IMG/VR virus record: IMGVR_UViG_3300047551_000777
Coordinates: 1 to 34,150 of that record
Strand: one strand, 5' to 3'
DNA: 34,150 bases
Source: a virus
In this document: in pieces, positions 21,338 to 34,150 of the stretch
Layout of the letters: every line of letters starts with the position of its first letter
How positions within the stretch are numbered: position 1 is the stretch's first letter
The notes under the pieces: generated by a model
Seen by the model: the letters and a program-made list of their open reading frames with translations, nothing else
The model's database searches: none
What the model was told of the DNA's origin: nothing
Program-made: the position numbers and the translations under genes

Positions 21338-21344
21338 CTAAATA
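21338..21344 (+). promoter_or_regulatory. Late-promoter-like box before the giant fibre gene
   Basis: CTAAATA at 21338-21344 lies in the 52-base gap between the 169-residue gene and the giant fibre gene, 42 bases before its ATG. It differs from the T4 late consensus TATAAATA only at the first positions. Being in one of the few real gaps and next to the largest gene makes a dedicated late promoter plausible, but short AT-rich boxes arise easily by chance here. Confidence 0.4.
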
Positions 21345-21386: not shown

Positions 21387-24300
21387 ATGAGTTTAGAATT
21401 TAATGCCGATAAACAAATTATAAAAGGTTCCGAACCAAGATTAGTTGGTTCGAGTGAACTGAGTATTAGGGCGGGTAGTGGTTCCGACGAAAAAGAAGTA
21501 GTTAGAGTTCAGTTAGATCCTTCTACAAAGTTACCCAGAGTCGGTGTTAATAGGACTGGAAGAAGAGTAGAAAAAATTACAATAAATTCTGGGTTTAATG
21601 GATCTGGTTATACAATAGCTCCTTCTGTTACATTGAGTGCTCCTCAATTAACTGGTGGAATACAAGCTCTAGCATCTGCTATTATTTCTGCTGGTGCTGT
21701 TGTGGGGATTATTGTCGATAATCCTGGAGATGGATATACTAGTGCTCCAACCGTAACTATTTCTGGAGGAAATGGCAGTGGTGCTGCCGCAACTGCTTTC
21801 TTAGATACTGTAGATTACGAGTTGGATGTTAATGGTGCTATTAGAACTTCCACTTCAATTATTTCAGACACTGCTAGAATTCTAAACCTAGATATTGATA
21901 ATTTTGTCACTGCAGATGCAAAATTTCGCTCTCCTGCGTTAAAAACATACGCCAACAATACAGGAATTTTATGGTCTCCGAATACGTCTGTCAACAAAGG
22001 AGACCAGAGATATTTTGGTGATAATATTTACGAAGCGATAACAGATGGGATTACCGCTTCAATTCCACCAACACATTTAGATGGAGATGTGGTTAATGGA
22101 ACCACAACATTCAAACACATTGGTTTCCGAGTAAATAGCCCATTATTAAAATATTATAATGAATCAATAAAATATCCTCGTTCAGTAACTCCGCCTCTAG
22201 GTGATAGAACAGAAAAAATTGCAACTACAGAATATGTTCTAAATCTTGCTACTAATGACGTTGGTGGTCGTGTTTATGTATCTCAGCAAATTGGTGATGA
22301 CGCTAACGATGGTCGTTCGGCAGTAAATCCCGTAAGAACGATTAAAAGAGCATGTCAAATTGCTTCTCAAACAGTTGGAACAAAAGAAACAGTTGTTATT
22401 TCAGGTGGAGATTATGTAGAAGATAACCCAATTTCCATTCCTCCAGATTGTTCAATTGTTGGTGATAACTTACGTCTTGTAATCGTAAGACCTAACAATC
22501 CCCGTAAACATATGTTTAAATTTGGGGATAAAAATTATGTAACTGGCATTACATTTAGAGATAAAATCGACAGTAATGGTGATCCTATCGCAACATGGGA
22601 TTACGCAATGGTGTTTGATGACAAACAAAGAATATATTATGATGTAAATTCAGGTGGAGATTTTGGAAGAAACTTCCCTGTTGGTCATCAAATTTTTGGT
22701 GTTCCAAAAATCAGAGTAACTTTCCAAACTAATACTGGTCTTACTGCATTAGCAGTTAATGAATATGTAACTGGTGTCAATACTGGTTCTGTTGGTATTG
22801 TTAAATCAGTAACATTTAATTCTGGGAATGTTTCTGGAACAGCTGATGTAGAAATTATCAGTGGTTCTTTCCAAACAGGAGAAACATTTACTTATCCAGG
22901 AGATTCTGCAAAGCCATGGGCAGCAAATACTTCTTTACTCTTAAATTCTTTCGTTTATAATGGCAATAATGTTTATTCAGTAACTGTTGCTGGAACAACA
23001 AGTTCTAGTGGTCCTACTCACGCTACAGGTGCTCAATTAAATGGCACTGCTGAATTAACTTGGATAAGAAGTGTTTATAGTTTCGTTGCTACTGACGTAA
23101 AATCAATTAGAGCTGAAGGTGAAGTTGTATCTCAAAATAAAGATTTAGTTTCAACACTTCCCATAACTAGAATTGATGGATCTCTGCAATCAGATCCAAA
23201 TGTTGATGGTATTGTAATTTACACCAGCCCCCTAATCGGAAGAACAAATACTCATGATTTTAAAGAAAACGAAGAAATTGAAATTTCTGGTCTTCCAACT
23301 ACTTCTCCTGATTTATCTTGGTTGAATGGTAAGCAAAGAGTTTATAAAATAATTAATGATGCCGATGGTAGATCTAGACGAATTGTTATTCCAAAAAAAT
23401 CAGCGACATTTACCGATTCGAATTACATTCCAAATTTAGCAACGGTTAAGAGATATTCATATTCTATTACACTATCGTTACTGAACTCACCAAACAAGTT
23501 TGAGACCACGCCATATGTTTCGAGAAGATTCCAGGATGCTTGCAATCTAATTAGAAATAATATTGAGTTTATTAAAGATGAAACTTATCTACAAATTGCA
23601 GATGAATTTAATCCAAACTTTAGTATTTCATCAATTAAAGCAACTAGCGGAACGGGATCAAATGCTGGTTATGTAATTTTAGAAGTTACAACAAGCGGTA
23701 ATCATGGTTTCTTTGTTGATGATAATGTTACAATTTACAAAAATGGTTTAAATAATGCTATTAATTCTAGTTATCCTGTTTACAGTAGAGTAAGTGATAC
23801 CGTTTTCCAAGTTAGATATTTTGGAACTGTTTCTACTCTCGGATTAACTTCTGGAAATACTTATAATACTTCATCCACTCCAGCACTCTCTGCTTCTGCA
23901 TATGTTCAGAGATCTTTTGTTATTCCAAATGAAACTAAGTGTCGTAGAGATATTGGGCATTTTGTAAATGCTATTATCATGGATTTGGAGTATGGAGGAA
24001 ATTACAACGTTGTAGAAGCTGCTCAAAGATATATTGAAAATGGTCAAATTGGATTTGTTGGAAATGAAATTGCACAAACAGTAAGAGCATTTGAAATTGC
24101 TAGAAAGTTATGTATTCTTGCAATGCGTCGTTGGAGAACACGCAACGGTCAATTGTCTGATCCACTTTACACTCCAGTTTATTCATCTGTTGCGAGATAT
24201 TTTGATCCTACTGTATCTCAAGATACCTCTTCTCCTGCTTGTAATGATGTTTCTTCTGCTATAAACACTTTATCATATTTGTTTGTTGCAATTTTAACAA

Positions 24301-27300
24301 ATAACAGCAGCGGAGCAGCGGGATCGACAACTGGAACTCAATTAGATGCTGGTTATCTCATCCAACGCAACGCTGATTTTATTGCTTCTGAGGCACTAGG
24401 GTATGCTGCAGCAACTTATCCTTCTCTCATTAGTAGTTTAACCGAAGATCAAAAGAGAAAATGCAAGAGAGATATTCGTTTCATCCTTTCTGGATTAACA
24501 CGAGATCTTATATTGGGTGGCAACGCAGGAATCGTTACTGCAGCGGAATCATACTTTACTGGAGCTGCTTTAACTGGAATTCCTTCCAACGAGCTTACCG
24601 CAACTCGTTATGCGTTTGAAAAAGCAAGAGATTTAGCTATACAAGCAATCCGTAACTGGTCTGGTGGAACTGTTGCTACTAGAACTCCATCTGGAGCTAC
24701 TTATGATTCCACCACAGGTGTTCTTACAGTAACATTCCCAGATCCTTCTACTCCTGTAACAACATCACACAAACTTGCGTTTAAAGAAGGTGCGTTAACA
24801 TTCAATTGTTCTTCTAACGGAGGTGGTAATTTAGCTAGCCCACAACCAACAGACAGAAATTATGGAAAGAGTCTTGCCATCACAAATGTAACCTCTTCGG
24901 GTGGAAATACAACAGTTACTGTAAATGTTGGTAACGCTGGAACTGCAACTGGAGTTTCTCATACATTTGTAAGTGCATTAGCAAATGGAACGATAATTAT
25001 TTACGATCCAGTAACGCCTGTTTACGAAACAACAATTACTAGAGTTGAAGATTGGAATATTCTTCTGTATGGATCAAATCCACTTTGCTCTAACGTTGCC
25101 TCTGCTATAACAACAGAAATGCTGTTGTTAGACAATATTTTGAGTGGTTCAATTCTTCCAGGTGCTACAGCAAAAACATATGGCACTCTTTATTCACCTA
25201 CCATTACATATCCAGAAGGAACTCTGTATGATGCAAATAATAGACGTATAACCCCTAGAGGAACATGGGATGATCTACCATATATTGAAGCCTCACCATA
25301 CACTCAGAATGCATCGGTAATTTCATTCTTGGGTGGTAATGGTGCCGAGGTTGATGGTAATAAAGTTGCTCAACCAAACTGCCCATTCCCAGGATTAGAA
25401 CTTAACGGAAGTGCATCTTTCCCAAATCAGGGTAAATCGATGGTTGCCTCTGCATTTACCATCGTATCTTTTGGCGGAACTGGATATAAAATTATTAATG
25501 ATGGTTATGTTCAGTTGGTTTCGGTGTTTGTTATCTTCTGTGCAGATGGTGTTTATGCAGATACTGGTGGATATGCTTCGGTTACTAACTCTGCTACAAA
25601 CTTTGGTATTTACGCTCTAAGAGCAAGAGGATACAGAGAAGAACCATATGTTTTTGATATTGGAACTATTACTAATGTAACCGAATCTGTAACTGGAAAA
25701 ACAGTGTTCACAGTTAGTGGATTAGGAAGAAGACCTTTAGAACATTATGTTGTTAAATTTAATGACTATAGAAATACAAATACTGCCATTGAATATTTCG
25801 TAGATGCAGTAAGTGGTGTTACTGTAGGTCCTCCTTTTACAGCAACATTAACTCTCAATGATACAGCAAGTTTTACTAAATTATCTACCAATTCTGTAGT
25901 TGCAAATTCAAATGCAGAATTTGTTGGAAAGACAATTAAATTACATAGACCATCTATTGTCAACTCTTCATCACATACTTGGGAATTTGCTGGTTCTGGA
26001 ACAAACTATAATGCTTTACCTGAAAATGGTGGAACTAAAATTGAAGCATATGAGCAAGTTTCAGAATTTTATGGTCGTGTATATACTTCAGGAACTGATG
26101 AACTTGGTGACTTCAAAGTAGGTTACTTTGCTCGCATTGAAAACAGAACAGGTGCTATTACTTTCACAGGTACTGTTACAATCTCTGAAGTTGAATTCTT
26201 GAAACTCAAGGGTGGTGATGTTGTTGTTACAGGTTTTGATGCCTCTCCAACATTGGGCGGAGCGTTCACTACCGATTCCAAACTACCTACTCAAAAAGCA
26301 GTTAAAGATTATATTACTAATAATCTTGGTCCTTACATCAACAAACCATATTCCACAAATGCAGTTCCGAGGGCACTCGTAGAACTCACGGATAGTGGTA
26401 AAATTTCTATTGATCAAATTCCTGCTCTTAGACCATTTAATGTATTTACCGTAGCAAATCAAACTGAAAGACTTGCTCTAGAAGGAGCATTGGCTGGTGA
26501 TATTGCTATCCAAGCAGATACAACTACATCATATATTCTCAACAATGATTTAACAAGTTTATATGCTGGATTTACAGTAGATACTGCTCTCCAATTTACC
26601 ATTGGTAATATATTCACTGGTTCTGGAACGGGTGGTCAAATTCAGGCAACTGAGTATAGGCAAGGTGTTGTTTATAAGTTAAATATCACAAATTCTGGTT
26701 CTGGATACACTGTTGCTCCAACTGTAACGATATCTGGTGGTGATCCTCAAGGTGGTGCTGTATCAGCTACTGCTGTTGCCACAATTGCAAATGGTCAAGT
26801 TGTTACTTTAACTATCACAGAAAATAATGGATTTATAGGTGGTAAAGGATATACTACGTCACCAACTGTAACAATTGCTGGTCCTGGTGGAGCAGGAGTT
26901 ACCGCAACTGCGTCAGCACTAATTGAAAGTAGATTATATGGAACAATTGTTAATAATATTAAATTAGAAGATACTGATAACATAACTTCAAACAACACAC
27001 CAACTGGAACAGTTGTTAATGTCAATCGTGTAGTCAATACTTCATCTTCTCTCGCTTCCAATTGGGTTTCATTATCATCCAATCAAATTTCAGCAGATGC
27101 AATTACATCTGGTGTTATTGCTACAACACGTCTCGCAAATAATTCATCTGAAGCAAATTCATTTACTTTCCTGAGAGGAGATCAATCTTATGCTCCTGCA
27201 CTACAATCTATTAAAGGATCCGAAACAAGATATTTTGCTAAGTTAATTCAATCAGCAGCACAAAATTCCAGTACGTTTGTTTTTGCAACAAATGCAAATA

Positions 27301-30300
27301 TATTAAAAGGTCATGGAATTGTTTCAATTACTGGGGTTCCTTTAAACACATCAGTAACCAATGTCTTAACTTCTGGTGGATCCACTACTGTAACAATAAG
27401 TAATCCTTTAACAGCTACTGTTGCCGCTGGAACTGTAATTGAATTTACTAGACCCGCTTCTCCTCTAATTCTAGACAGCCCATATACTATAGGAAGTTTT
27501 ATTGACAGTGTAGTTGTTGCTTCGGGTGGAACTGGATTTACGAATGGAACATACACCGATGTTTCTTTATCTGGGGGAACTGGAACTGGTTTAAAAGCAA
27601 ATATTACTGTTTCTGGAAATAGTGTAACTTCTGTAGTTGTTACAAATGGTGGTATTAATTACACAGGTGATTTTAATATCACAAATGTTCCTGCTGGCAT
27701 AGGATCAGGATCTGGATTGGTGTTGTCTGCTAAATTAGCGACAACATCCAAAAATTATGCTAACACTTCTTTAGATATCAGAAGAGTTGATGATTTAACA
27801 ATTACTGCAGACCCATTTGGAAATGCTGGTATCGCTCGTTTCCAAAAATCACAATTTACAATTGGTGCTTCTGGTAATGGATCAGTAACTCTTAAAACTG
27901 GTGCTGATAGTGGATTGGATGCTGATTTACTTGATGGCGCACAAGGTTCTTACTATCTAAACGCAAGCAATTTAAATCAGGGAGTTGTTTCGGTAGATCG
28001 CTTAAGCGGCACTTATAATATTAGTGTTTCTGGTCAGTCTGGTAACACACTTCGTTTGATTACATCGACCAACAACCCAACTTCATCTCCTTCACCAAAC
28101 TCATTCTCTGAAGGTATTATTGCTGATACCAGAAATAATAGTGCTGACAGTCTAGATGATGGTGGATCTAGACATTTGGTAATGACTCTCAGAAACTTTG
28201 GTTCTGGTTTTGATTCCACTGGAGGCGGAGTAAGGCAACTTGCATTTACTGATAATGACAATATGTGGATTCGTGGATCTGGAACAGGTGTTACCACATT
28301 TGGATCTTGGGCAAAAATCTGGACATCAATCAATGATGGTCCTGGCACTGGATTAGATGCAGACAAACTCGATAACAAGCAAGGTGTCTTTTATCAAAAT
28401 GCTTATAATATTAATGCTGGATTGATATCTGACAATAGATTACCTTCATATCAAAGTGCAAAATCATTTAATAATTCATTAAAGATATTTACAACTACAA
28501 ATAATACTTACTACGACATTTATATTCCTGGATTTGTTTTAACTGCATCTCCTTTCCTTTCTGGTCAACAAGTATTTTTATACAATGTCAACGCACAAAA
28601 CGTTGGTGGTATTACTATTACCAATGTTGTTACTTATAATGATGCTGACGATGCTTTAGATTATACAATAATTTCTGGTGTTTTGACTACTGGTGTATTC
28701 ACTGGAGCAGAAACAATAGGAACTGCATCAAACAGAGTTCCTTTCCAAGATTTCACAATCAGAAATCAAGGAACATTTGAAACAGCATCCCTAGAAAGTG
28801 CAACTGGAACTGCTTTACTCAGATTGGGAAGAAAAGATGGAACTGCTTCATCTCCATCAATTTATTTCAATAGTAGTGCATCTGCAGCAACAAACTACAA
28901 TATAGCATTAATTGCATCTGGTGGTAGTAGCACAGATGGAAGTGGAAATTTAAATATAGTTGCTGGAAGTGTTGATGCAGTTACCATTAACAACCAAAAG
29001 ATTTGGAATGCTGGAAACTTAACTCCTGCTTCAAATAATGTTGCAAACACTGTGGTTCTTCGTGATGGATCTGGCAATTTTGCTGCTGGAACAATTACCG
29101 CTACATTAACAGGTTCTGCTTCCTTGAATGTGTTGAAGACTGGAGATACCATGACTGGTTCTCTAAACATCAGTGGTGCATCGAGCAACCTATCGGTTGG
29201 AGGAACTTCAACATTAACTGGCAATGTAACAATTGGTGCTGGATCTAGTTTAACCGTTGACACAAACACATTATATGTTGACCCAACAAACGATCGTGTT
29301 GGTATTGGATTAACTAATCCAGGAACTAAATTGGAAGTTTCTGGTGCCATTCGTGGTGGTAATTTTGCTCAAAGTCAGACAAATACTGGAGAAGCATGGT
29401 TTGGTAGGGCAGGAGATAGAACACTAGGAACATACACACTACAACTGGGTGGATCTTCTGCCACAGGCACACTGTTTGAAATTGTTGATAGAGCTTGGTC
29501 TAAGGTAATGTATTCCTTGAGCGGTGAAGCTGCTGCGAATACATTAGTTGCTACTTCTGATAGCAGAATTGGTATTGGTAGATCTCCAACTGCAGGTTAC
29601 AAGTTAGATGTCAATGGCACTGCTTTATTCTCTGATGCAGTAACTATTGCTACAACTACCGACCAAATGTTATATCTAAATGCCACAGATAATTCTTGGG
29701 CATACATGGGATTCGCATGGAGCGGAACAAGAAGATACTATTTTGGTTTGGATAGTGGTGGAAATGGTCAACTAACTAGTGATAGCACATCATATAGTTT
29801 AAACATAAATGGTTGGTCTGCCGTAAATATGAACCAGAATTTACAAATTTCTGGTGCAGATAGCGATGGTTTGAGATTATCTGGAACAGCACCGACAATT
29901 ACTTTCCAAGATTCAGATAACAGAAGTGCATTTATTCATGTAAATAGTAATCTTTTCTATATTTTAGGTGGAGCAAATAATGCTGTTGAACCAAACTGGG
30001 CGCAAGTTGCCAATAGTAGATGGCCACTTACGATAGATTTAACTAATAATAATGCAACATTCGGTGGTGCTGTAGATACATCAGCAGGAACATTAAATGC
30101 TCAAAATGGATTGCAATTAAAAACATGGAGCGGTAGTGCAAACTATACTTCAATAACGCATTCTGGGTGGACTGGTTCATCTGATTACGCAATCCTTCTT
30201 TCTAATACAGATCCAAACACATACATTTCAGCAAAATCTGGATCTAGCGTTTTTATTCGTGGTGGTGGTAATGGCACTACTGGTGTTAAAGTTGACCCCT

Positions 30301-31385
30301 CTGGTTATGTTGGTATTAGAACAGAATCTACAAGTTCTTCTTACGCTTTACAGGTTGGTGGTGCAATCAATATTCAAGGTGAAATTTATAAAAATGGCAC
30401 AATATTTAATACACTACCAGCTCAAAACGCAAGCACAATTGGCGCTACGTTGAAGAGCGATGGAACAAATGCTTACTGGGCAGCTGATCCTGCCACACAG
30501 TATCAAACAGCATTTACTATTTCTAGAGGATATTCTCTTGCAGGATATAAAGATGCTACTTCTTGGAAAAATGTAAACTCTCTCAACCATTCAACATTTA
30601 CTCAAAGTAATTTGGGAGACTTATTATCTTTCAGTGATGGTTATTGTGCAGGAGCTCAAAGTTTAAGCATGATTGCTTATGTATTCACAACTGCTGATAG
30701 TTGGGATGGAACATCGGCAACTGTCTCTAAAGTAAATATGAATACAAATGCTAATGCAGGAACAACATCTGTTAATAGCGCAAGAAACAGAGCAACATTA
30801 ATGAGAAGAGACTTTAGATTTGCTTATGTCTATGGTGCTGGTGGATCACAACCAAGTAAATTTAATCTAACAAATGATACTTCATCGGCTTCTCCAAATG
30901 GAAACCCAGAAGGAGACGTAAACAACCCAGCTGGCGGTTACGGTCCTGTGTATGGATGGACTAAAAAGAGCAATGGATATTCATTCCCATGGGCAACTGA
31001 AACTTATGTTGGATGGAGCAATCCTCCAGGAACAGATGGATCTAACAAAACAATTTCATCGAGAAATAATGCTGCTTATTGGAACACTGGTGGAGGTTAT
31101 CAAACTGGTAATAACTGGTCTAAGAGAACACTTGATACTGGAACAGAAGTAGCTTCTATTGCTAAAAATGGAGTTACAGGTGAAGAAACATTACATACAG
31201 GTAATAGTTATGGATTTATGTGTGGTATGTATAATGGTGCTCAGAATAACCAAGGCGGTGTTATGAATTATGCTGCAGATACTTGGAGTTTCAACAGCAG
31301 TGTAAATAGAGTGGGTCCACCTGGAGCTGCTTCTGGTGCAGGAACAGAATTTGGTAGTGTTATTTCAGGTTACACAGGAGTTTAA
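21387..31385 (+). CDS. Giant tail fibre/adhesin, 3332 residues
   Basis: Probable main fibre. In order: Gly-Ser-Gly-Tyr repeats (about residues 60-130); a carbohydrate-binding-like module (196-248); a PLGDRTEKIATTEYVLNLA block leading into a right-handed beta-helix start (RVYVSQQIGDDANDG, about 295); a second carbohydrate-binding-like module (509-566); a duplicated helical region (717-1260); more beta-helix (1318-1420); a TDSKLPTQKAVKDYI block (about 1630); more repeats (about 1765-1850 and 2040-2110); two LDADxLD motifs (about 2176, 2322) around a pyocin-knob-like segment (W near SGTGVTTFGSWAKIW); three VGIG...L.V.G motifs (about 2637, 2726, 2973); and a C-terminal region of repeated blade-like segments (about 3040-3332). 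Beta-helix, knob and VGIG motifs are classic for phage fibres. No S74 autochaperone is seen at the end. A late-promoter-like box precedes it, and the next gene starts four bases after its stop. Confidence 0.9.
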   Translation: MSLEFNADKQIIKGSEPRLVGSSELSIRAGSGSDEKEVVRVQLDPSTKLPRVGVNRTGRRVEKITINSGFNGSGYTIAPSVTLSAPQLTGGIQALASAIISAGAVVGIIVDNPGDGYTSAPTVTISGGNGSGAAATAFLDTVDYELDVNGAIRTSTSIISDTARILNLDIDNFVTADAKFRSPALKTYANNTGILWSPNTSVNKGDQRYFGDNIYEAITDGITASIPPTHLDGDVVNGTTTFKHIGFRVNSPLLKYYNESIKYPRSVTPPLGDRTEKIATTEYVLNLATNDVGGRVYVSQQIGDDANDGRSAVNPVRTIKRACQIASQTVGTKETVVISGGDYVEDNPISIPPDCSIVGDNLRLVIVRPNNPRKHMFKFGDKNYVTGITFRDKIDSNGDPIATWDYAMVFDDKQRIYYDVNSGGDFGRNFPVGHQIFGVPKIRVTFQTNTGLTALAVNEYVTGVNTGSVGIVKSVTFNSGNVSGTADVEIISGSFQTGETFTYPGDSAKPWAANTSLLLNSFVYNGNNVYSVTVAGTTSSSGPTHATGAQLNGTAELTWIRSVYSFVATDVKSIRAEGEVVSQNKDLVSTLPITRIDGSLQSDPNVDGIVIYTSPLIGRTNTHDFKENEEIEISGLPTTSPDLSWLNGKQRVYKIINDADGRSRRIVIPKKSATFTDSNYIPNLATVKRYSYSITLSLLNSPNKFETTPYVSRRFQDACNLIRNNIEFIKDETYLQIADEFNPNFSISSIKATSGTGSNAGYVILEVTTSGNHGFFVDDNVTIYKNGLNNAINSSYPVYSRVSDTVFQVRYFGTVSTLGLTSGNTYNTSSTPALSASAYVQRSFVIPNETKCRRDIGHFVNAIIMDLEYGGNYNVVEAAQRYIENGQIGFVGNEIAQTVRAFEIARKLCILAMRRWRTRNGQLSDPLYTPVYSSVARYFDPTVSQDTSSPACNDVSSAINTLSYLFVAILTNNSSGAAGSTTGTQLDAGYLIQRNADFIASEALGYAAATYPSLISSLTEDQKRKCKRDIRFILSGLTRDLILGGNAGIVTAAESYFTGAALTGIPSNELTATRYAFEKARDLAIQAIRNWSGGTVATRTPSGATYDSTTGVLTVTFPDPSTPVTTSHKLAFKEGALTFNCSSNGGGNLASPQPTDRNYGKSLAITNVTSSGGNTTVTVNVGNAGTATGVSHTFVSALANGTIIIYDPVTPVYETTITRVEDWNILLYGSNPLCSNVASAITTEMLLLDNILSGSILPGATAKTYGTLYSPTITYPEGTLYDANNRRITPRGTWDDLPYIEASPYTQNASVISFLGGNGAEVDGNKVAQPNCPFPGLELNGSASFPNQGKSMVASAFTIVSFGGTGYKIINDGYVQLVSVFVIFCADGVYADTGGYASVTNSATNFGIYALRARGYREEPYVFDIGTITNVTESVTGKTVFTVSGLGRRPLEHYVVKFNDYRNTNTAIEYFVDAVSGVTVGPPFTATLTLNDTASFTKLSTNSVVANSNAEFVGKTIKLHRPSIVNSSSHTWEFAGSGTNYNALPENGGTKIEAYEQVSEFYGRVYTSGTDELGDFKVGYFARIENRTGAITFTGTVTISEVEFLKLKGGDVVVTGFDASPTLGGAFTTDSKLPTQKAVKDYITNNLGPYINKPYSTNAVPRALVELTDSGKISIDQIPALRPFNVFTVANQTERLALEGALAGDIAIQADTTTSYILNNDLTSLYAGFTVDTALQFTIGNIFTGSGTGGQIQATEYRQGVVYKLNITNSGSGYTVAPTVTISGGDPQGGAVSATAVATIANGQVVTLTITENNGFIGGKGYTTSPTVTIAGPGGAGVTATASALIESRLYGTIVNNIKLEDTDNITSNNTPTGTVVNVNRVVNTSSSLASNWVSLSSNQISADAITSGVIATTRLANNSSEANSFTFLRGDQSYAPALQSIKGSETRYFAKLIQSAAQNSSTFVFATNANILKGHGIVSITGVPLNTSVTNVLTSGGSTTVTISNPLTATVAAGTVIEFTRPASPLILDSPYTIGSFIDSVVVASGGTGFTNGTYTDVSLSGGTGTGLKANITVSGNSVTSVVVTNGGINYTGDFNITNVPAGIGSGSGLVLSAKLATTSKNYANTSLDIRRVDDLTITADPFGNAGIARFQKSQFTIGASGNGSVTLKTGADSGLDADLLDGAQGSYYLNASNLNQGVVSVDRLSGTYNISVSGQSGNTLRLITSTNNPTSSPSPNSFSEGIIADTRNNSADSLDDGGSRHLVMTLRNFGSGFDSTGGGVRQLAFTDNDNMWIRGSGTGVTTFGSWAKIWTSINDGPGTGLDADKLDNKQGVFYQNAYNINAGLISDNRLPSYQSAKSFNNSLKIFTTTNNTYYDIYIPGFVLTASPFLSGQQVFLYNVNAQNVGGITITNVVTYNDADDALDYTIISGVLTTGVFTGAETIGTASNRVPFQDFTIRNQGTFETASLESATGTALLRLGRKDGTASSPSIYFNSSASAATNYNIALIASGGSSTDGSGNLNIVAGSVDAVTINNQKIWNAGNLTPASNNVANTVVLRDGSGNFAAGTITATLTGSASLNVLKTGDTMTGSLNISGASSNLSVGGTSTLTGNVTIGAGSSLTVDTNTLYVDPTNDRVGIGLTNPGTKLEVSGAIRGGNFAQSQTNTGEAWFGRAGDRTLGTYTLQLGGSSATGTLFEIVDRAWSKVMYSLSGEAAANTLVATSDSRIGIGRSPTAGYKLDVNGTALFSDAVTIATTTDQMLYLNATDNSWAYMGFAWSGTRRYYFGLDSGGNGQLTSDSTSYSLNINGWSAVNMNQNLQISGADSDGLRLSGTAPTITFQDSDNRSAFIHVNSNLFYILGGANNAVEPNWAQVANSRWPLTIDLTNNNATFGGAVDTSAGTLNAQNGLQLKTWSGSANYTSITHSGWTGSSDYAILLSNTDPNTYISAKSGSSVFIRGGGNGTTGVKVDPSGYVGIRTESTSSSYALQVGGAINIQGEIYKNGTIFNTLPAQNASTIGATLKSDGTNAYWAADPATQYQTAFTISRGYSLAGYKDATSWKNVNSLNHSTFTQSNLGDLLSFSDGYCAGAQSLSMIAYVFTTADSWDGTSATVSKVNMNTNANAGTTSVNSARNRATLMRRDFRFAYVYGAGGSQPSKFNLTNDTSSASPNGNPEGDVNNPAGGYGPVYGWTKKSNGYSFPWATETYVGWSNPPGTDGSNKTISSRNNAAYWNTGGGYQTGNNWSKRTLDTGTEVASIAKNGVTGEETLHTGNSYGFMCGMYNGAQNNQGGVMNYAADTWSFNSSVNRVGPPGAASGAGTEFGSVISGYTGV
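23535..25165 (+). repeat. Tandem duplication of a helical domain inside the giant fibre
   Basis: Unit A starts near 23535 (DACNLIRNNIEFI) and unit B near 24345 (DAGYLIQRNADFI). Each then has a C(R/K)RDI helix (C852 and C1026), a GG-N segment, a (V)xAAExY or EAAQRYI helix, a FE(I/K)AR helix ending in W, and a final helix after PACNDVSSAI or PLCSNVASAI. A beta domain of about 95 residues is inserted early in unit A, and a different-looking one late in unit B. The match is at protein level only. Confidence 0.75.
31377..31380 (+). promoter_or_regulatory. Ribosome binding site inside the end of the giant fibre gene
   Basis: GGAG lies 8 bases before the ATG at 31389 and inside the last codons of the fibre gene. 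Translation of the next gene is therefore probably coupled to that of the fibre. Confidence 0.65.
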
Positions 31386-31388
31386 TAA

Positions 31389-32144
31389 ATGAAAAAGTAT
31401 TATTTGTCAAATGATAGTCTAGGATTATCAAAATTATCTACTTACAATCCATACGGAAACGTTTTAAATTGGAATTCTTTTTCCATAGAAGAAATAGATT
31501 TTGAAAATTTAAAAAAATATGTCTCAAATTTTATTGAGATCGATCAAGAAATGGCGGTATTTGGATTTAGATCATTTGGTGATCCTAGAGTAGAAATAAA
31601 AATTTCAAAACAAGATATTGATTTGAACGTAGAATATGATGACAGTGTAGATTTGAGTTATTATGAATCGGTTTTTAATAACAAAGTAAAAATACCAATG
31701 AGTGAAAAAAGATATAATTGTGTTGTGAAAACTATGAAGTTGGTATCCAAATTAATTTTGGAAGAAGAATTTGAAAATCGATACAAAAAATATATTGCAT
31801 CTATTACTTCATTAGAAACAAATTCTTGGTATCATCAATTAAACGATGAAAGTTTTGTAGAACATCTATCTTCAATTAAAAAAATTTCAAAAGAAGATTT
31901 TAAAACTAGGATAAATACAAAAAAACAAGAGCATGATGAGTATTTGAAAAAATTATATTTGGAATTACAGGAATTGAAGCAAAAATTTTATGATGTAGAA
32001 ACAATAAAAGAATTGAATATTTTGTATGAAGATTACTTCAACATTCCTATGCATGGAGAACAAGCAAGAGAATGTGGTAGGTTGATAGAAAAACAAAACG
32101 GAACTATATTCAGAAAACCTGTGGGAACTGGATTTAATTTTTAA
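31389..32144 (+). CDS. Hypothetical helical protein, candidate tail-fibre assembly chaperone, 251 residues
   Basis: No family recognised with certainty. The N-terminal third looks like a small mixed fold; the rest is helical and charged, with a long amphipathic helix near residues 176-205. From residue 140 the pattern is SLETNSWYHQL (W147, Q150), then ISKEDFKTRINTKKQEHDEY, then a helix and a short hairpin region. This layout (SW-x2-Q, a short loop, then an xSxExFxxxI helix) recalls the C-terminal region of phage tail-fibre assembly proteins, which often sit right after the fibre gene. The gene begins four bases after the giant fibre stop, with its ribosome site inside that gene. No signal peptide or membrane segment. 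It is clearly more AT-rich than gp8. The chaperone role is inference from pattern and position. Confidence 0.6.
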   Translation: MKKYYLSNDSLGLSKLSTYNPYGNVLNWNSFSIEEIDFENLKKYVSNFIEIDQEMAVFGFRSFGDPRVEIKISKQDIDLNVEYDDSVDLSYYESVFNNKVKIPMSEKRYNCVVKTMKLVSKLILEEEFENRYKKYIASITSLETNSWYHQLNDESFVEHLSSIKKISKEDFKTRINTKKQEHDEYLKKLYLELQELKQKFYDVETIKELNILYEDYFNIPMHGEQARECGRLIEKQNGTIFRKPVGTGFNF

Positions 32145-32159
32145 TTACTGGTAATAATT

Positions 32160-32936
32160 ATGTCTTTATCAAAAAAAGAAGTTATAGAAGTTGCAGAAAA
32201 GTGGACTTCTGGTATGTCACCAGAGCAAATAAACTTTTTTGTTATGAAATCTCATGTCACTAAAGACAGGCAAATAAAGCAAGCTTTGTTAGAAGTCGAA
32301 CAAAGATATCATAATTTACAAAAAATTGCAATTCAAAATAAAAGAACATTATTAGAAATTAAAAAAATAAAAAATAAATTGGAAACGTGTGAAGACGAAT
32401 TTGAAAGAGAGGCACTTTTAATTGATTTAGAAGATCTGGAAATTGATGATCAAACATATCAAAGAAAGAAAAAAGCTCTAGATAAAGAATTTGATACTTT
32501 TGTAAAATATCTACAAGATTTAGATTTACCAAAAGAGGAATTAGAAGAGCATTTAGAATATAACGAAGAACAAGAAAGAAAATATTGGATTGCTAGATTA
32601 GGAAAACAAGCAGCTCTAGACTTATTAACTAGTGGTAGAATAGGTCTTGGTAACATGGATTCGATTGCTATGTTATCAGAAGAAGATCAACTTTCAACAA
32701 TTCAAGTTGCCGTTCAATATTCTGGTTTGTTGGGTGTTGGCATCGGAAAAATGCAACAAAAATTGATGCCATATTTACAACAATTAGAAAAATCAGATTC
32801 TATGTCTCTGCCAACATTTCATGGAATAGAAGAAAATTTGGAAGTTCCCCTACTAAACGAACTTAAAAAATACAAAGGTGAATTGAATGAAGCAACCTCA
32901 GAAAGTATTCAGTCTACCGATAAATCCAAAACTTGA
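32160..32936 (+). CDS. Conserved-type helical protein of unknown function, 258 residues
   Basis: I do not recognise a function. Residues about 40-150 are strongly charged and helical, with heptad-like spacing (KIKNKLETCEDEFEREALL, then EELEEHLEYNEEQERKYW), so a coiled coil or helical bundle is likely. The following segment (RKYWIARLGKQAALDLLTSG, then GRIGLGNMDSIAML) looks like the conserved core and resembles hypothetical proteins of marine T4-like phages as I remember them. Another helical part follows (QYSGLLGVGIGKMQQKLMPY), and the last 35 residues look disordered. The gene starts 15 bases after the previous stop with no strong ribosome site, and its last 50 bases overlap the next gene. 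It has no signal peptide, membrane segment or catalytic motif. A virion-assembly role is possible from context only. Confidence 0.6.
   Translation: MSLSKKEVIEVAEKWTSGMSPEQINFFVMKSHVTKDRQIKQALLEVEQRYHNLQKIAIQNKRTLLEIKKIKNKLETCEDEFEREALLIDLEDLEIDDQTYQRKKKALDKEFDTFVKYLQDLDLPKEELEEHLEYNEEQERKYWIARLGKQAALDLLTSGRIGLGNMDSIAMLSEEDQLSTIQVAVQYSGLLGVGIGKMQQKLMPYLQQLEKSDSMSLPTFHGIEENLEVPLLNELKKYKGELNEATSESIQSTDKSKT
32875..32880 (+). promoter_or_regulatory. Ribosome binding site that fixes the start at 32887
   Basis: AAGGTG lies 6 bases before the ATG at 32887, inside the end of the previous gene. It supports the overlapping start over later in-frame ATG codons such as the one at the MPPFEQDAMG segment. 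Confidence 0.6.
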
Positions 32937-34150
32937 TAAAAAATTTATCGACGAGATTTTTATACCATTTTTATTAAAAAATCAAGAATATATTTTTGAT
33001 TTATATTTTACATGCAGAATGCCCCCATTTGAACAAGATGCAATGGGGGATTTATTCGAAGATAATAAAATTACAACCTACAATTCTTTTTACATCTCGG
33101 AACAATCTGGTATTCCATTATCCGCTACTTTCAATAATATTTTTGTGAGACCAGATCAAGAAAATCTTGATTTGTTCATTAAAAATTTTCGATACGTTTA
33201 TGATAAAGGAGTCAGGATTGCAACCATTCCTCACACATCTTGGTTATTGACTGGTCAAATACAAAAAGAATTTCCAGAGTTGTATATCAAAAATACAATT
33301 CTGAGAGAAGTTACAAGACCAAACGAAATTGTTTCTTTAGCAAAAGCAGGATTTAATTATATTAATCTCGATAGAGATTTAATGCGTGATAGAGATCAAC
33401 TTCTTGCAATTAAAGAAGCAAAAGAATATTGTGCTTCTATTGGGAAACCAGTTAAGTTATCTCTCTTGGCAAACGAAAATTGTTGGGGTGGTTGCCCTAT
33501 AATGCCAGAACATTATCATTATAATAATACAAGGAAATTAAACAATCCAGAATATTTTGGAGATGCTATCAGCAGAGTTTCTTGTTCTACTTGGGATATT
33601 GAAGATTCTTCATCTTCGTTGAAAGCAGCAAATATTCCCCCATGGAAAAAAGATTGGGAAGAATTTTTAGAAGAGGGAATAGATGTTTTTAAAATGCATG
33701 GAAGAGAATCTGCGATTCGATTAAATGAATCTATGGATATTATATCAAAATGGGCAAATGATGAAGAATTACTATTCTCCAACTTTAATGAGTATATTCA
33801 CGACATACACATTGAAAATAAACCAATTGATATTTGGAGAGAAAAAATAAAAAATTGTAAGTTTAACTGTTGGAAATGCAACTACTGTGAATCTGTTATA
33901 GAATCTAGAGTAAAAAAATATAACAAAGAAAGAATTCCATTAGTTCATCATGTAATGCAATCCTTAGAAAAATCTGGCAGAGGAGAATCTAATTTTAATG
34001 AAAAAAATTATAATATCGAAGGATTATCGTCAAACCGTGTAAGACATTTTTTAAACAATCTCTGTTCTCACGATAACTCGATTTACCTAGAAATTGGTTG
34101 TTATGCTGGAAGTACTTTTTTTGCTGCAAATATGAATAATGATATTATAT
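32887..34150 (+). CDS. U32-type TIM-barrel/Fe-S-like protein fused to a class I methyltransferase (3' end cut)
   Basis: 421 codons are visible, and the gene runs off the right edge. Residues 1 to about 340 resemble the U32 peptidase-like TIM-barrel group (relatives UbiU/UbiV, RlhA, TrhP). Barrel-type segments include FDLYFTCRMPPF, SATFNNIFVRPDQ, VRIATIPHTSWLLTGQ, FNYINLDRDLMRDR and VKLSLLANENC. Cysteines that could hold an Fe-S cluster or zinc are C199 and C203 (NENCWGGCP), C233, and a dense group C324, C328, C331 and C334 (CKFNCWKCNYC). From about residue 395 the motif YLEIGCYAGST (E402 to T410) is a class I SAM-binding loop, so a methyltransferase domain begins here. Family relatives use Fe-S clusters in hydroxylation chemistry; no reaction can be named for this one. 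It overlaps the upstream gene by 50 bases. The U32 reading comes from motif recognition, not a search. Confidence 0.7.
   Translation, partial: MKQPQKVFSLPINPKLDKKFIDEIFIPFLLKNQEYIFDLYFTCRMPPFEQDAMGDLFEDNKITTYNSFYISEQSGIPLSATFNNIFVRPDQENLDLFIKNFRYVYDKGVRIATIPHTSWLLTGQIQKEFPELYIKNTILREVTRPNEIVSLAKAGFNYINLDRDLMRDRDQLLAIKEAKEYCASIGKPVKLSLLANENCWGGCPIMPEHYHYNNTRKLNNPEYFGDAISRVSCSTWDIEDSSSSLKAANIPPWKKDWEEFLEEGIDVFKMHGRESAIRLNESMDIISKWANDEELLFSNFNEYIHDIHIENKPIDIWREKIKNCKFNCWKCNYCESVIESRVKKYNKERIPLVHHVMQSLEKSGRGESNFNEKNYNIEGLSSNRVRHFLNNLCSHDNSIYLEIGCYAGSTFFAANMNNDII

What the first reader, a model, noticed from the sequence alone, without database searches (positions are those of the whole stretch)
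32887..34150. U32-like Fe-S/TIM-barrel protein joined to a methyltransferase in a phage late operon
NENCWGGCP, a further Cys at 233 and the dense CKFNCWKCNYC group give seven candidate metal ligands in a U32-type barrel. The same frame then enters a SAM-binding loop (EIGCYAGST). Bacterial relatives do hydroxylation of RNA or quinone precursors. A two-domain enzyme beside the fibre genes suggests modification of a virion protein, RNA or small molecule, and I know of no described function for it.
Basis: partly seen in the sequence, partly recalled or inferred. Interest (0 to 1): 0.72.

Follow-up and report, generated by a model that had tools for sequence, protein, structure and literature searches.

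The report
Phage hydroxylase-methyltransferase fusion beside fibre tip
Many viruses of ocean cyanobacteria carry a two-part protein whose first half resembles bacterial iron-sulfur enzymes that attach oxygen to molecules and whose second half attaches methyl groups; it sits beside the virus's tail-fibre tip gene and probably chemically decorates that tip or another partner, but nobody has tested it.

Summary
ORF 32887-34149 is open, with the cysteines and SAM loop as described, and is cut by the contig end. It is T4-GC354/PHROG_1458, a "hypothetical protein" in 123 cyanomyovirus records. Relatives are about 560-615 aa and fused in 217 of 218 complete copies. Eight cysteines, FK-x-x-GR and the SAM and acidic residues of the methyltransferase are (nearly) invariant across 90 sequences. 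The barrel's best solved-structure match is the U32 protein Mk0906 (Z 16.2, next 13.0). Enterobacterial T4-like phage homologues that pass the Pfam U32 cut-off bridge it to U32 proteins. It fails Pfam U32 and the canonical motif, so it is a divergent U32 relative, not a canonical member. The C-terminal half is a COMT/TylF-type O-methyltransferase. New here: the upstream gene T4-GC353 occurs in the same number of records (123) with the same host breakdown; T4-GC351, two genes further up, is the tip of the giant fibre in this window; and downstream genes are very often 2OG-Fe(II) oxygenases (55/74 loci; background 7-16%), once a tryptophan halogenase. Most likely it hydroxylates and then O-methylates the fibre tip or a partner in this cassette. 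Fe-S binding, activity and substrate are untested.

The parts
32887..34149 (+). U32-like barrel fused to an O-methyltransferase (T4-GC354 / PHROG_1458), truncated by the contig end at residue 421 of about 570
32887..33936 (+). U32-like (beta/alpha)8 barrel region, residues 1-350
   Evidence: AF2 model pLDDT 84.5, pTM 0.85; 5d88 Z 16.2, 227 aligned, rmsd 3.3
33013..33015 (+). C43, just after strand 2; Cys in 79/89, Ser/Thr in 10/89; same place in the fold as UbiV ligand C39 (inference)
   Evidence: UbiV ligands from PMC6747719
33472..33495 (+). NENCWGGC motif, residues 196-203, just after a central strand; C199 and C203 invariant
33583..33585 (+). C233, invariant
33688..33705 (+). FKMHGR, residues 268-273, matching the U32 K-[IVL]-x-G-R motif; K269, G272 and R273 invariant
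33856..33888 (+). C-terminal CX3CX2CX2C cluster, residues 324-334; shared with the enterobacterial phage U32 proteins
33967..34149 (+). start of the COMT/TylF-type methyltransferase domain, with SAM loop EIGCYAGST at 34090-34116; the rest lies beyond the contig
32160..32936 (+). T4-GC353 (PHROG_1409), overlaps the start of the U32-MT gene; 123 records each, same host breakdown
31389..32144 (+). T4-GC352 (PHROG_1604), part of the fixed cassette
30285..31382 (+). C-terminal tip region of the 3332-aa fibre ORF (21387-31385), homologous to the separate T4-GC351 protein of other cyanophages; candidate substrate (inference)
21338..21344 (+). CTAAATA, T4-like cyanophage late-promoter motif (motif from memory), 42 nt before the fibre ORF in an intergenic gap

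Best explanation
T4-GC354 is a bifunctional tailoring enzyme of marine T4-like cyanophages. Shown by homology and fold: an N-terminal U32-related (beta/alpha)8 barrel with invariant cysteines in the region where U32 hydroxylases hold their [4Fe-4S] cluster, a second four-cysteine cluster, and a C-terminal COMT/TylF-type SAM O-methyltransferase with an intact SAM loop and invariant acidic residues at the expected metal site. Shown by genomics: it forms a fixed cassette with the fibre-tip domain (T4-GC351), T4-GC352 and T4-GC353, and 2OG-Fe(II) oxygenases usually follow it. Inferred: the barrel hydroxylates a substrate and the fused methyltransferase caps the new hydroxyl, giving a methoxy group, as B. 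subtilis TrhP1/2 plus TrmR do on tRNA. Inferred, less sure: the substrate is the neighbouring fibre tip or its partner proteins, so the phage decorates its receptor-binding tip late in infection. Not known: whether the cluster is Fe-S, which residue is modified, and the oxygen donor (host prephenate is the natural guess).
For: Barrel: AF2 model, 5d88 first at Z 16.2 against 13.0; a model made without enterobacterial sequences also finds 5d88 (E 1.3e-5). Homology chain: cyanophage to enterophage profile E 4.9e-7 across residues 33-338; enterophage proteins pass PF01136 at about 1e-11 and match E. coli U32 (E 2.3e-6). Methyltransferase: Methyltransf_24 matches 10 of 12 members, best 1.2e-8; COMT/TomG/TrmR/MycF Z 15-17; G404, G408, T410, D426, D488, D516, D517, N519 invariant. 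Fusion in 217/218. Cassette: T4-GC351/352/353 upstream in 60-61 of 62; T4-GC353 and 354 both in 123 records with the same host breakdown, of about 458 cyanophage records found with a baseplate gene; T4-GC351 is the window fibre's C-terminus. 2OG oxygenase downstream in 55/74 and next gene in 36/74, against 1/62 upstream and 7-16% background; holds after clustering at 70% identity (14/15). S-SM1, with no T4-GC354 in the fibre region examined, has several 2OG oxygenases there. Chemistry precedent: TrhP/TrmR (PMC6599085), UbiUV (PMC6747719).
Against: No biochemical data. Direct profile comparison with E. coli U32 proteins is weak (E 0.006, probability 6%); the link rests on fold and an intermediate. 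The Glu essential in TrhP (E162) has no clear counterpart in the strand (S192 invariant instead), and the CX6CX15CX3C pattern is absent. Characterised U32 hydroxylases act on nucleobases or quinone precursors, never on a protein as far as I know. No chorismate mutase gene in the cyanophages tested. Fibre-tip modification rests on gene context only; cyanophages have many 2OG oxygenases elsewhere, and P-HM2 has none next to this gene.
Confidence: 0.42

Rival explanations
1. Same two-step chemistry on RNA: the barrel makes 5-hydroxypyrimidine in tRNA or rRNA and the methyltransferase makes 5-methoxypyrimidine, a one-chain TrhP-TrmR that retunes decoding for the AT-rich phage.
For: Characterised nucleic-acid U32 enzymes act on RNA; B. 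subtilis trmR lies in one operon with trhP1/trhP2, and TrhO-TrmR fusions exist (PMC6599085); TrmR is among the top fold matches of the methyltransferase (Z 16.4).
Against: TrmR is tied with many other COMT-type enzymes. The gene sits in a late structural cassette and tracks T4-GC353. P-SSM4 and 97% of P-HM2 have the gene but no tRNA genes, though host tRNAs could be targets. No RNA-binding domain was seen.
Confidence: 0.2
2. It hydroxylates and methylates a nucleotide or DNA base, parallel to the enterobacterial T4-like relatives, whose U32 and chorismate mutase genes lie in a base-hypermodification cluster (arabinosyl-5-hydroxycytosine DNA).
For: Its nearest phage relatives lie beside dCMP-hydroxymethylase-like and sugar-activation genes; RB69-like phage DNA carries 5-hydroxycytosine-based modifications (PMC13390438).
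Against: The cyanophage gene is in the late fibre region with no nucleotide genes next to it in the cassette and its genomes have no chorismate mutase hit; the two families share only about 22% identity.
Confidence: 0.13
3. It acts on a small molecule, lipid or glycan (for example a quinone-like ring or a virion-attached sugar), as UbiUV plus UbiG or TylF/MycF-type sugar O-methyltransferases do.
For: UbiUV hydroxylate quinone precursors that are then O-methylated (PMC6747719); MycF and TomG are among the top methyltransferase fold matches.
Against: No biosynthetic or glycosyltransferase genes next to it in the loci read; constant linkage is to fibre-region proteins.
Confidence: 0.13
4. The barrel is not an Fe-S hydroxylase: the cysteines bind zinc or are structural, and only the methyltransferase is catalytic.
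For: The TrhP-essential Glu and the canonical cysteine spacing are missing; C43 is replaced by Ser/Thr in 10 of 89; the solved U32 structure 5d88 was deposited as a peptidase.
Against: C199, C203, C233, N196, E197 and FK-x-x-GR are invariant and shared with the enterobacterial phage family that does pass the U32 profile.
Confidence: 0.12

Closest known systems
U32 oxidases UbiU/UbiV, TrhP, RlhA (PF01136)
   Same: barrel fold, cysteines in the same region of the barrel, K-x-x-G-R motif, profile link through enterobacterial phage U32 proteins
   Different: below the Pfam threshold, essential Glu of TrhP not conserved, different cysteine spacing, extra C-terminal CX3CX2CX2C, fused methyltransferase
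PHROG_5757 'peptidase' of RB69-like and Kanagawavirus T4-like phages (U32 passing Pfam)
   Same: seven shared cysteine columns, NExC, FK-x-x-GR and the C-terminal cysteine cluster
   Different: stand-alone, about 390 aa, beside chorismate mutase and nucleotide genes rather than fibre genes
TrmR (YrrM), COMT, TomG, MycF/TylF-type O-methyltransferases (Methyltransf_24)
   Same: fold (Z 15-17), SAM loop, acidic residues at the expected metal site
   Different: fused to the barrel; sequence identity 12-17%; substrate unknown
B. subtilis trmR-trhP1-trhP2 operon
   Same: U32 hydroxylase coupled to a COMT-type O-methyltransferase
   Different: three separate proteins acting on tRNA; the phage has one chain in a fibre cassette

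Membership tests
Peptidase U32 / U32 oxidases | match to Pfam PF01136 | tested here: not met
   no hit for the window or four full-length relatives, none at E<=10 in six cyanophage records while the enterophage controls ring
Peptidase U32 / U32 oxidases | U32 barrel fold | tested here: met
   5d88 first, Z 16.2, rmsd 3.3, 227 of 247 residues, next 13.0;
Peptidase U32 / U32 oxidases | sequence homology to accepted members | tested here: met
   through an intermediate: (E 4.9e-7); direct comparison weak
Peptidase U32 / U32 oxidases | E-x-F-x2-G-[SA]-x-C-x6-C active-site motif (TrhP E162, C170, C177 essential) | tested here: not met
   cyanophages have S192 and NExC-x3-C instead
Peptidase U32 / U32 oxidases | four conserved cysteines CX6CX15CX3/4C, or the UbiV pattern | tested here: inconclusive
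   C199-x3-C203-x29-C233 invariant; candidate fourth C43 in 79/89; no coordinates available to measure distances
Peptidase U32 / U32 oxidases | K-[IVL]-x-G-R motif after the last strand | tested here: met
   FKMHGR; K269, G272, R273 invariant in 90
Peptidase U32 / U32 oxidases | [4Fe-4S] cluster and prephenate-dependent hydroxylation | not testable with these tools
   needs protein
COMT/TylF-type SAM O-methyltransferase (Methyltransf_24) | family profile match | tested here: met
   10 of 12 members match at E<=1, best 1.2e-8; single members such as P-HM2 fall just below the cut-off (23.6 against 26.3 bits)
COMT/TylF-type SAM O-methyltransferase (Methyltransf_24) | class I methyltransferase fold | tested here: met
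   Z 15-17 over about 175 residues
COMT/TylF-type SAM O-methyltransferase (Methyltransf_24) | SAM loop and three acidic/amide metal ligands | tested here: inconclusive
   G404, G408, T410, D426, D488, D516, D517, N519 invariant; metal equivalence inferred, not superposed
TrmR (ho5U34 tRNA O-methyltransferase) | closest relationship to TrmR rather than other COMT types | tested here: inconclusive
   5zw3 Z 16.4 tied with TomG 16.7 and others
Radical SAM | CX3CX2C right after the first barrel strand | tested here: not met
   the CX3CX2CX2C lies after the last barrel strand, residues 324-334

The most novel reading that the evidence does not exclude
Abundant ocean cyanophages carry a fibre-tip tailoring cassette: an O2-independent U32-type Fe-S hydroxylase fused to an O-methyltransferase, with 2OG-Fe(II) oxygenases and sometimes a tryptophan halogenase, that puts methoxy and other groups on residues of the receptor-binding fibre tip. 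This would be the first U32 enzyme acting on a protein and a new kind of phage adhesin modification.
Probability: 0.28. Interest if true: 0.85.

Novelty: new variant of a known kind. Interest (0 to 1): 0.62.

Why it matters
U32 enzymes are a recently recognised class of oxygen-independent hydroxylases with few known substrates. A fused U32-like/O-methyltransferase carried by at least 123 sequenced marine phage records, in a fixed cassette with the fibre tip, gives a testable case of a new substrate class and of chemical decoration of phage receptor-binding tips. The homologues in RB69-like phages, next to chorismate mutase, also suggest a testable role for U32 chemistry in making the 5-hydroxycytosine of their DNA. 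The work also corrects a misleading 'denV' annotation common in cyanophage genomes.

Tried and rejected
Single-sequence and profile searches of Pfam, NCBIfam and PDB sequences gave nothing usable for the barrel. The genome-contig scan found only two MAG contigs at 63-69% identity, probably phage contamination, so no cellular origin was found. Radical SAM rejected from the position of the CX3CX2C. Frameshift or assembly artefact rejected: 217/218 fused. T4-GC100 as a marker of the fibre slot rejected: it sits in varied places. A tRNA-gene link was looked for and not seen. PADLOC: no defence-system match. Cys geometry could not be measured: models come without coordinates. Literature searches for U32 in cyanophages or in arabinosylating phages found nothing, but the library is partial; two key papers were not held. 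VIA-align on the full-length model listed only methyltransferases because that domain filled the list; the barrel was therefore folded alone. Sigma-70-type promoter scan near the gene: no more than chance.

Full report
What is in the sequence. The ORF at 32887-34149 (+) starts at an ATG that overlaps the end of the previous gene by 50 nt and runs off the contig after 421 codons. The window is a 34,150-base IMG/VR virus record. The protein is PHROG_1458 (E 5e-194), function unknown. It occurs in 123 GenBank cyanophage records, at 59-64% identity among those listed, always over at least 80% of the query, and is annotated 'hypothetical protein, T4-GC 354' in Syn19, P-SSM4, P-HM2 and S-ShM2.

Is the fusion real? 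Among 243 environmental and reference copies, 218 have both ends, and 217 of these are single ORFs of 543-614 codons (stop to stop). The one exception (L221, 359 codons) is probably a frameshifted copy. Eight cysteines (182, 199, 203, 233, 324, 328, 331, 334) are Cys in every sequence that covers them in the set of 90 that remains after clustering at 95%; C43 is Cys in 79, Ser in 7 and Thr in 3.

What the barrel is. The window's residues 1-350 were modelled with 93 aligned sequences, 11 of them enterobacterial phage relatives (pLDDT 84.5, pTM 0.85). Among the 1000 PDB chains Foldseek ranked highest, the U32 protein Mk0906 (5d88) is first by VIA-align at Z 16.2 (rmsd 3.3, 227 aligned); the next is MetF at 13.0. 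By plain Foldseek E-value MetF chains rank slightly above 5d88, but 5d88 has the best TM-scores of the list (0.52/0.71). The full-length model of a close relative, made without enterobacterial sequences, also finds 5d88 (E 1.3e-5). By sequence, weak tblastn hits (E 0.02-0.9) led to enterobacterial T4-like phage proteins annotated 'peptidase'. These pass the Pfam U32 cut-off (E about 1e-11), align with the cyanophage profile over residues 33-338 (hhalign E 4.9e-7) and with E. coli UbiU/UbiV/TrhP/RlhA (E 2.3e-6). Direct cyanophage to E. coli comparison is weak. The cyanophage protein has no PF01136 hit even at E<=10 and lacks the canonical E-x-F-x2-G-x-x-C-x6-C motif, including a counterpart of TrhP E162, which is essential there (PMC6599085). 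It keeps K-x-x-G-R. I therefore call it a divergent U32 relative and do not file it as a canonical member.

Cysteine sites. From the secondary structure, C43 follows strand 2, C199 and C203 follow a later strand (190-194), C233 lies in the long loop before the last strand, and C324-C334 come after the last strand. UbiV's cluster ligands are C39, C180, C193 and C197, the first far upstream of the others (PMC6747719); C43 plus C199/C203/C233 would be an analogous set, with a possible three-cysteine variant where C43 is Ser/Thr. No other cysteine is gained in the Ser/Thr group. The C-terminal CX3CX2CX2C has a counterpart in the enterobacterial proteins (CX4CX3CX2C). Metal identity is untested.

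The methyltransferase. The window holds only about its first 60 residues; conclusions come from relatives. The domain matches COMT, TomG, TrmR and MycF structures at Z 15-17, ten of twelve members match Methyltransf_24 (best 1.2e-8), and the SAM-loop residues G404, G408 and T410 and D426, D488, D516, D517 and N519 are invariant. An active O-methyltransferase is the best reading; the metal site is inferred from sequence.

Context upstream. In 62 loci with at least 2.4 kb upstream, T4-GC351, 352 and 353 precede the gene in 60-61. T4-GC353 occurs in 123 phage records, the same number and the same organism and host breakdown as T4-GC354; the lists were not compared record by record. A baseplate gene of this window finds about 458 cyanophage records, so the pair is present in roughly a quarter of cyanomyovirus records. 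T4-GC351 is a separate protein in Syn19 and P-HM2 but is the C-terminal end of the 3332-aa fibre ORF in this window (35-45% identity). The CTAAATA late-promoter motif stands 42 nt before that fibre ORF, so 21387-34150 is probably one late unit (inference).

Context downstream. In 74 loci with at least 1.5 kb downstream, 55 have a 2OG-Fe(II) oxygenase and in 36 it is the next gene. Upstream it is 1 in 62. In two whole genomes the chance of such a gene within 3-4.5 kb of a random point is 7-16%. The pattern holds after clustering at 70% identity (14 of 15 clusters), although related genomes are not independent. Pfam confirms representative genes as 2OG oxygenases, one as a tryptophan halogenase (E 6e-71) and one as a [2Fe-2S] ferredoxin. 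S-SM1, in which no T4-GC354 was seen in the region examined, has several 2OG oxygenases in the fibre region; Syn30 also has them beside fibre genes.

Mechanism. Known U32 enzymes insert hydroxyl groups without O2, with prephenate as the likely oxygen donor (PMC11574389; PMC6599085), and in B. subtilis a COMT-type enzyme, TrmR, methylates the hydroxyl made by TrhP1/2 (PMC6599085). A U32-like barrel fused to a COMT-type methyltransferase therefore suggests hydroxylation followed by methyl capping. The fixed cassette with the fibre tip and T4-GC353, plus neighbouring 2OG oxygenases of the prolyl-hydroxylase type, points to a virion protein as substrate; T4-GC351 has several nearly invariant Tyr/Trp positions, which is suggestive only. 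RNA, DNA and small-molecule substrates remain open and are listed as rivals with tests.

Side finding. The enterobacterial relatives (218 records) lie beside a chorismate mutase gene in many genomes (59 records with a hit; Pfam CM_2 confirmed in five), which would supply prephenate. RB69-like phages carry arabinosylated 5-hydroxycytosine (PMC13390438), and RlhA, a U32 enzyme, is needed for 5-hydroxycytidine in rRNA (PMC6599085). PMC13390438 credits a thymidylate-synthase-like enzyme with making 5-hydroxy-dCMP, so any U32 role there is a hypothesis. PMC8056088 had already listed RB69p050 as a peptidase homologue presumed to take part.

Noticed in passing
L088:5923-7322, L089:5782-7295, L090:5782-7190, L091:5920-7319, L092:2911-4584: Enterobacterial T4-like phages carry a Pfam-passing U32 gene next to a chorismate mutase gene, in a base-hypermodification cluster; this could supply prephenate for a hydroxylation step towards 5-hydroxycytosine DNA.
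   Followed up: partly
L270:4995-5474, L273:6001-6531 and other T4-GC100 genes: T4-GC100, widely annotated 'DNA endonuclease V (denV)', is a 2OG-Fe(II) oxygenase by Pfam in S-SSM7 and Syn30 (E 6e-7, above cut-off).
   Followed up: yes
L019:3871-5280: Tryptophan halogenase (PF04820, E 6e-71) directly downstream of the U32-methyltransferase gene; S-H38 also has one beside T4-GC100.
   Followed up: partly
L125:4753-5037: Plant-type [2Fe-2S] ferredoxin 31 nt downstream of the U32-methyltransferase gene, a possible electron donor.
   Followed up: partly
window 30285-31385: T4-GC351 'sericin 1 precursor-like protein' of other cyanophages is the C-terminal tip of the giant 3332-aa fibre ORF here.
   Followed up: partly
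L006:7333-8115: 261-aa protein with a 4Fe-4S ferredoxin-like stretch between two 2OG oxygenase genes downstream of the U32-methyltransferase.
   Followed up: no
L086, L087: Two MAG contigs labelled archaeal and Dehalococcoidia carry the gene at 63-69% identity; probably cyanophage contamination of the MAGs.
   Followed up: no
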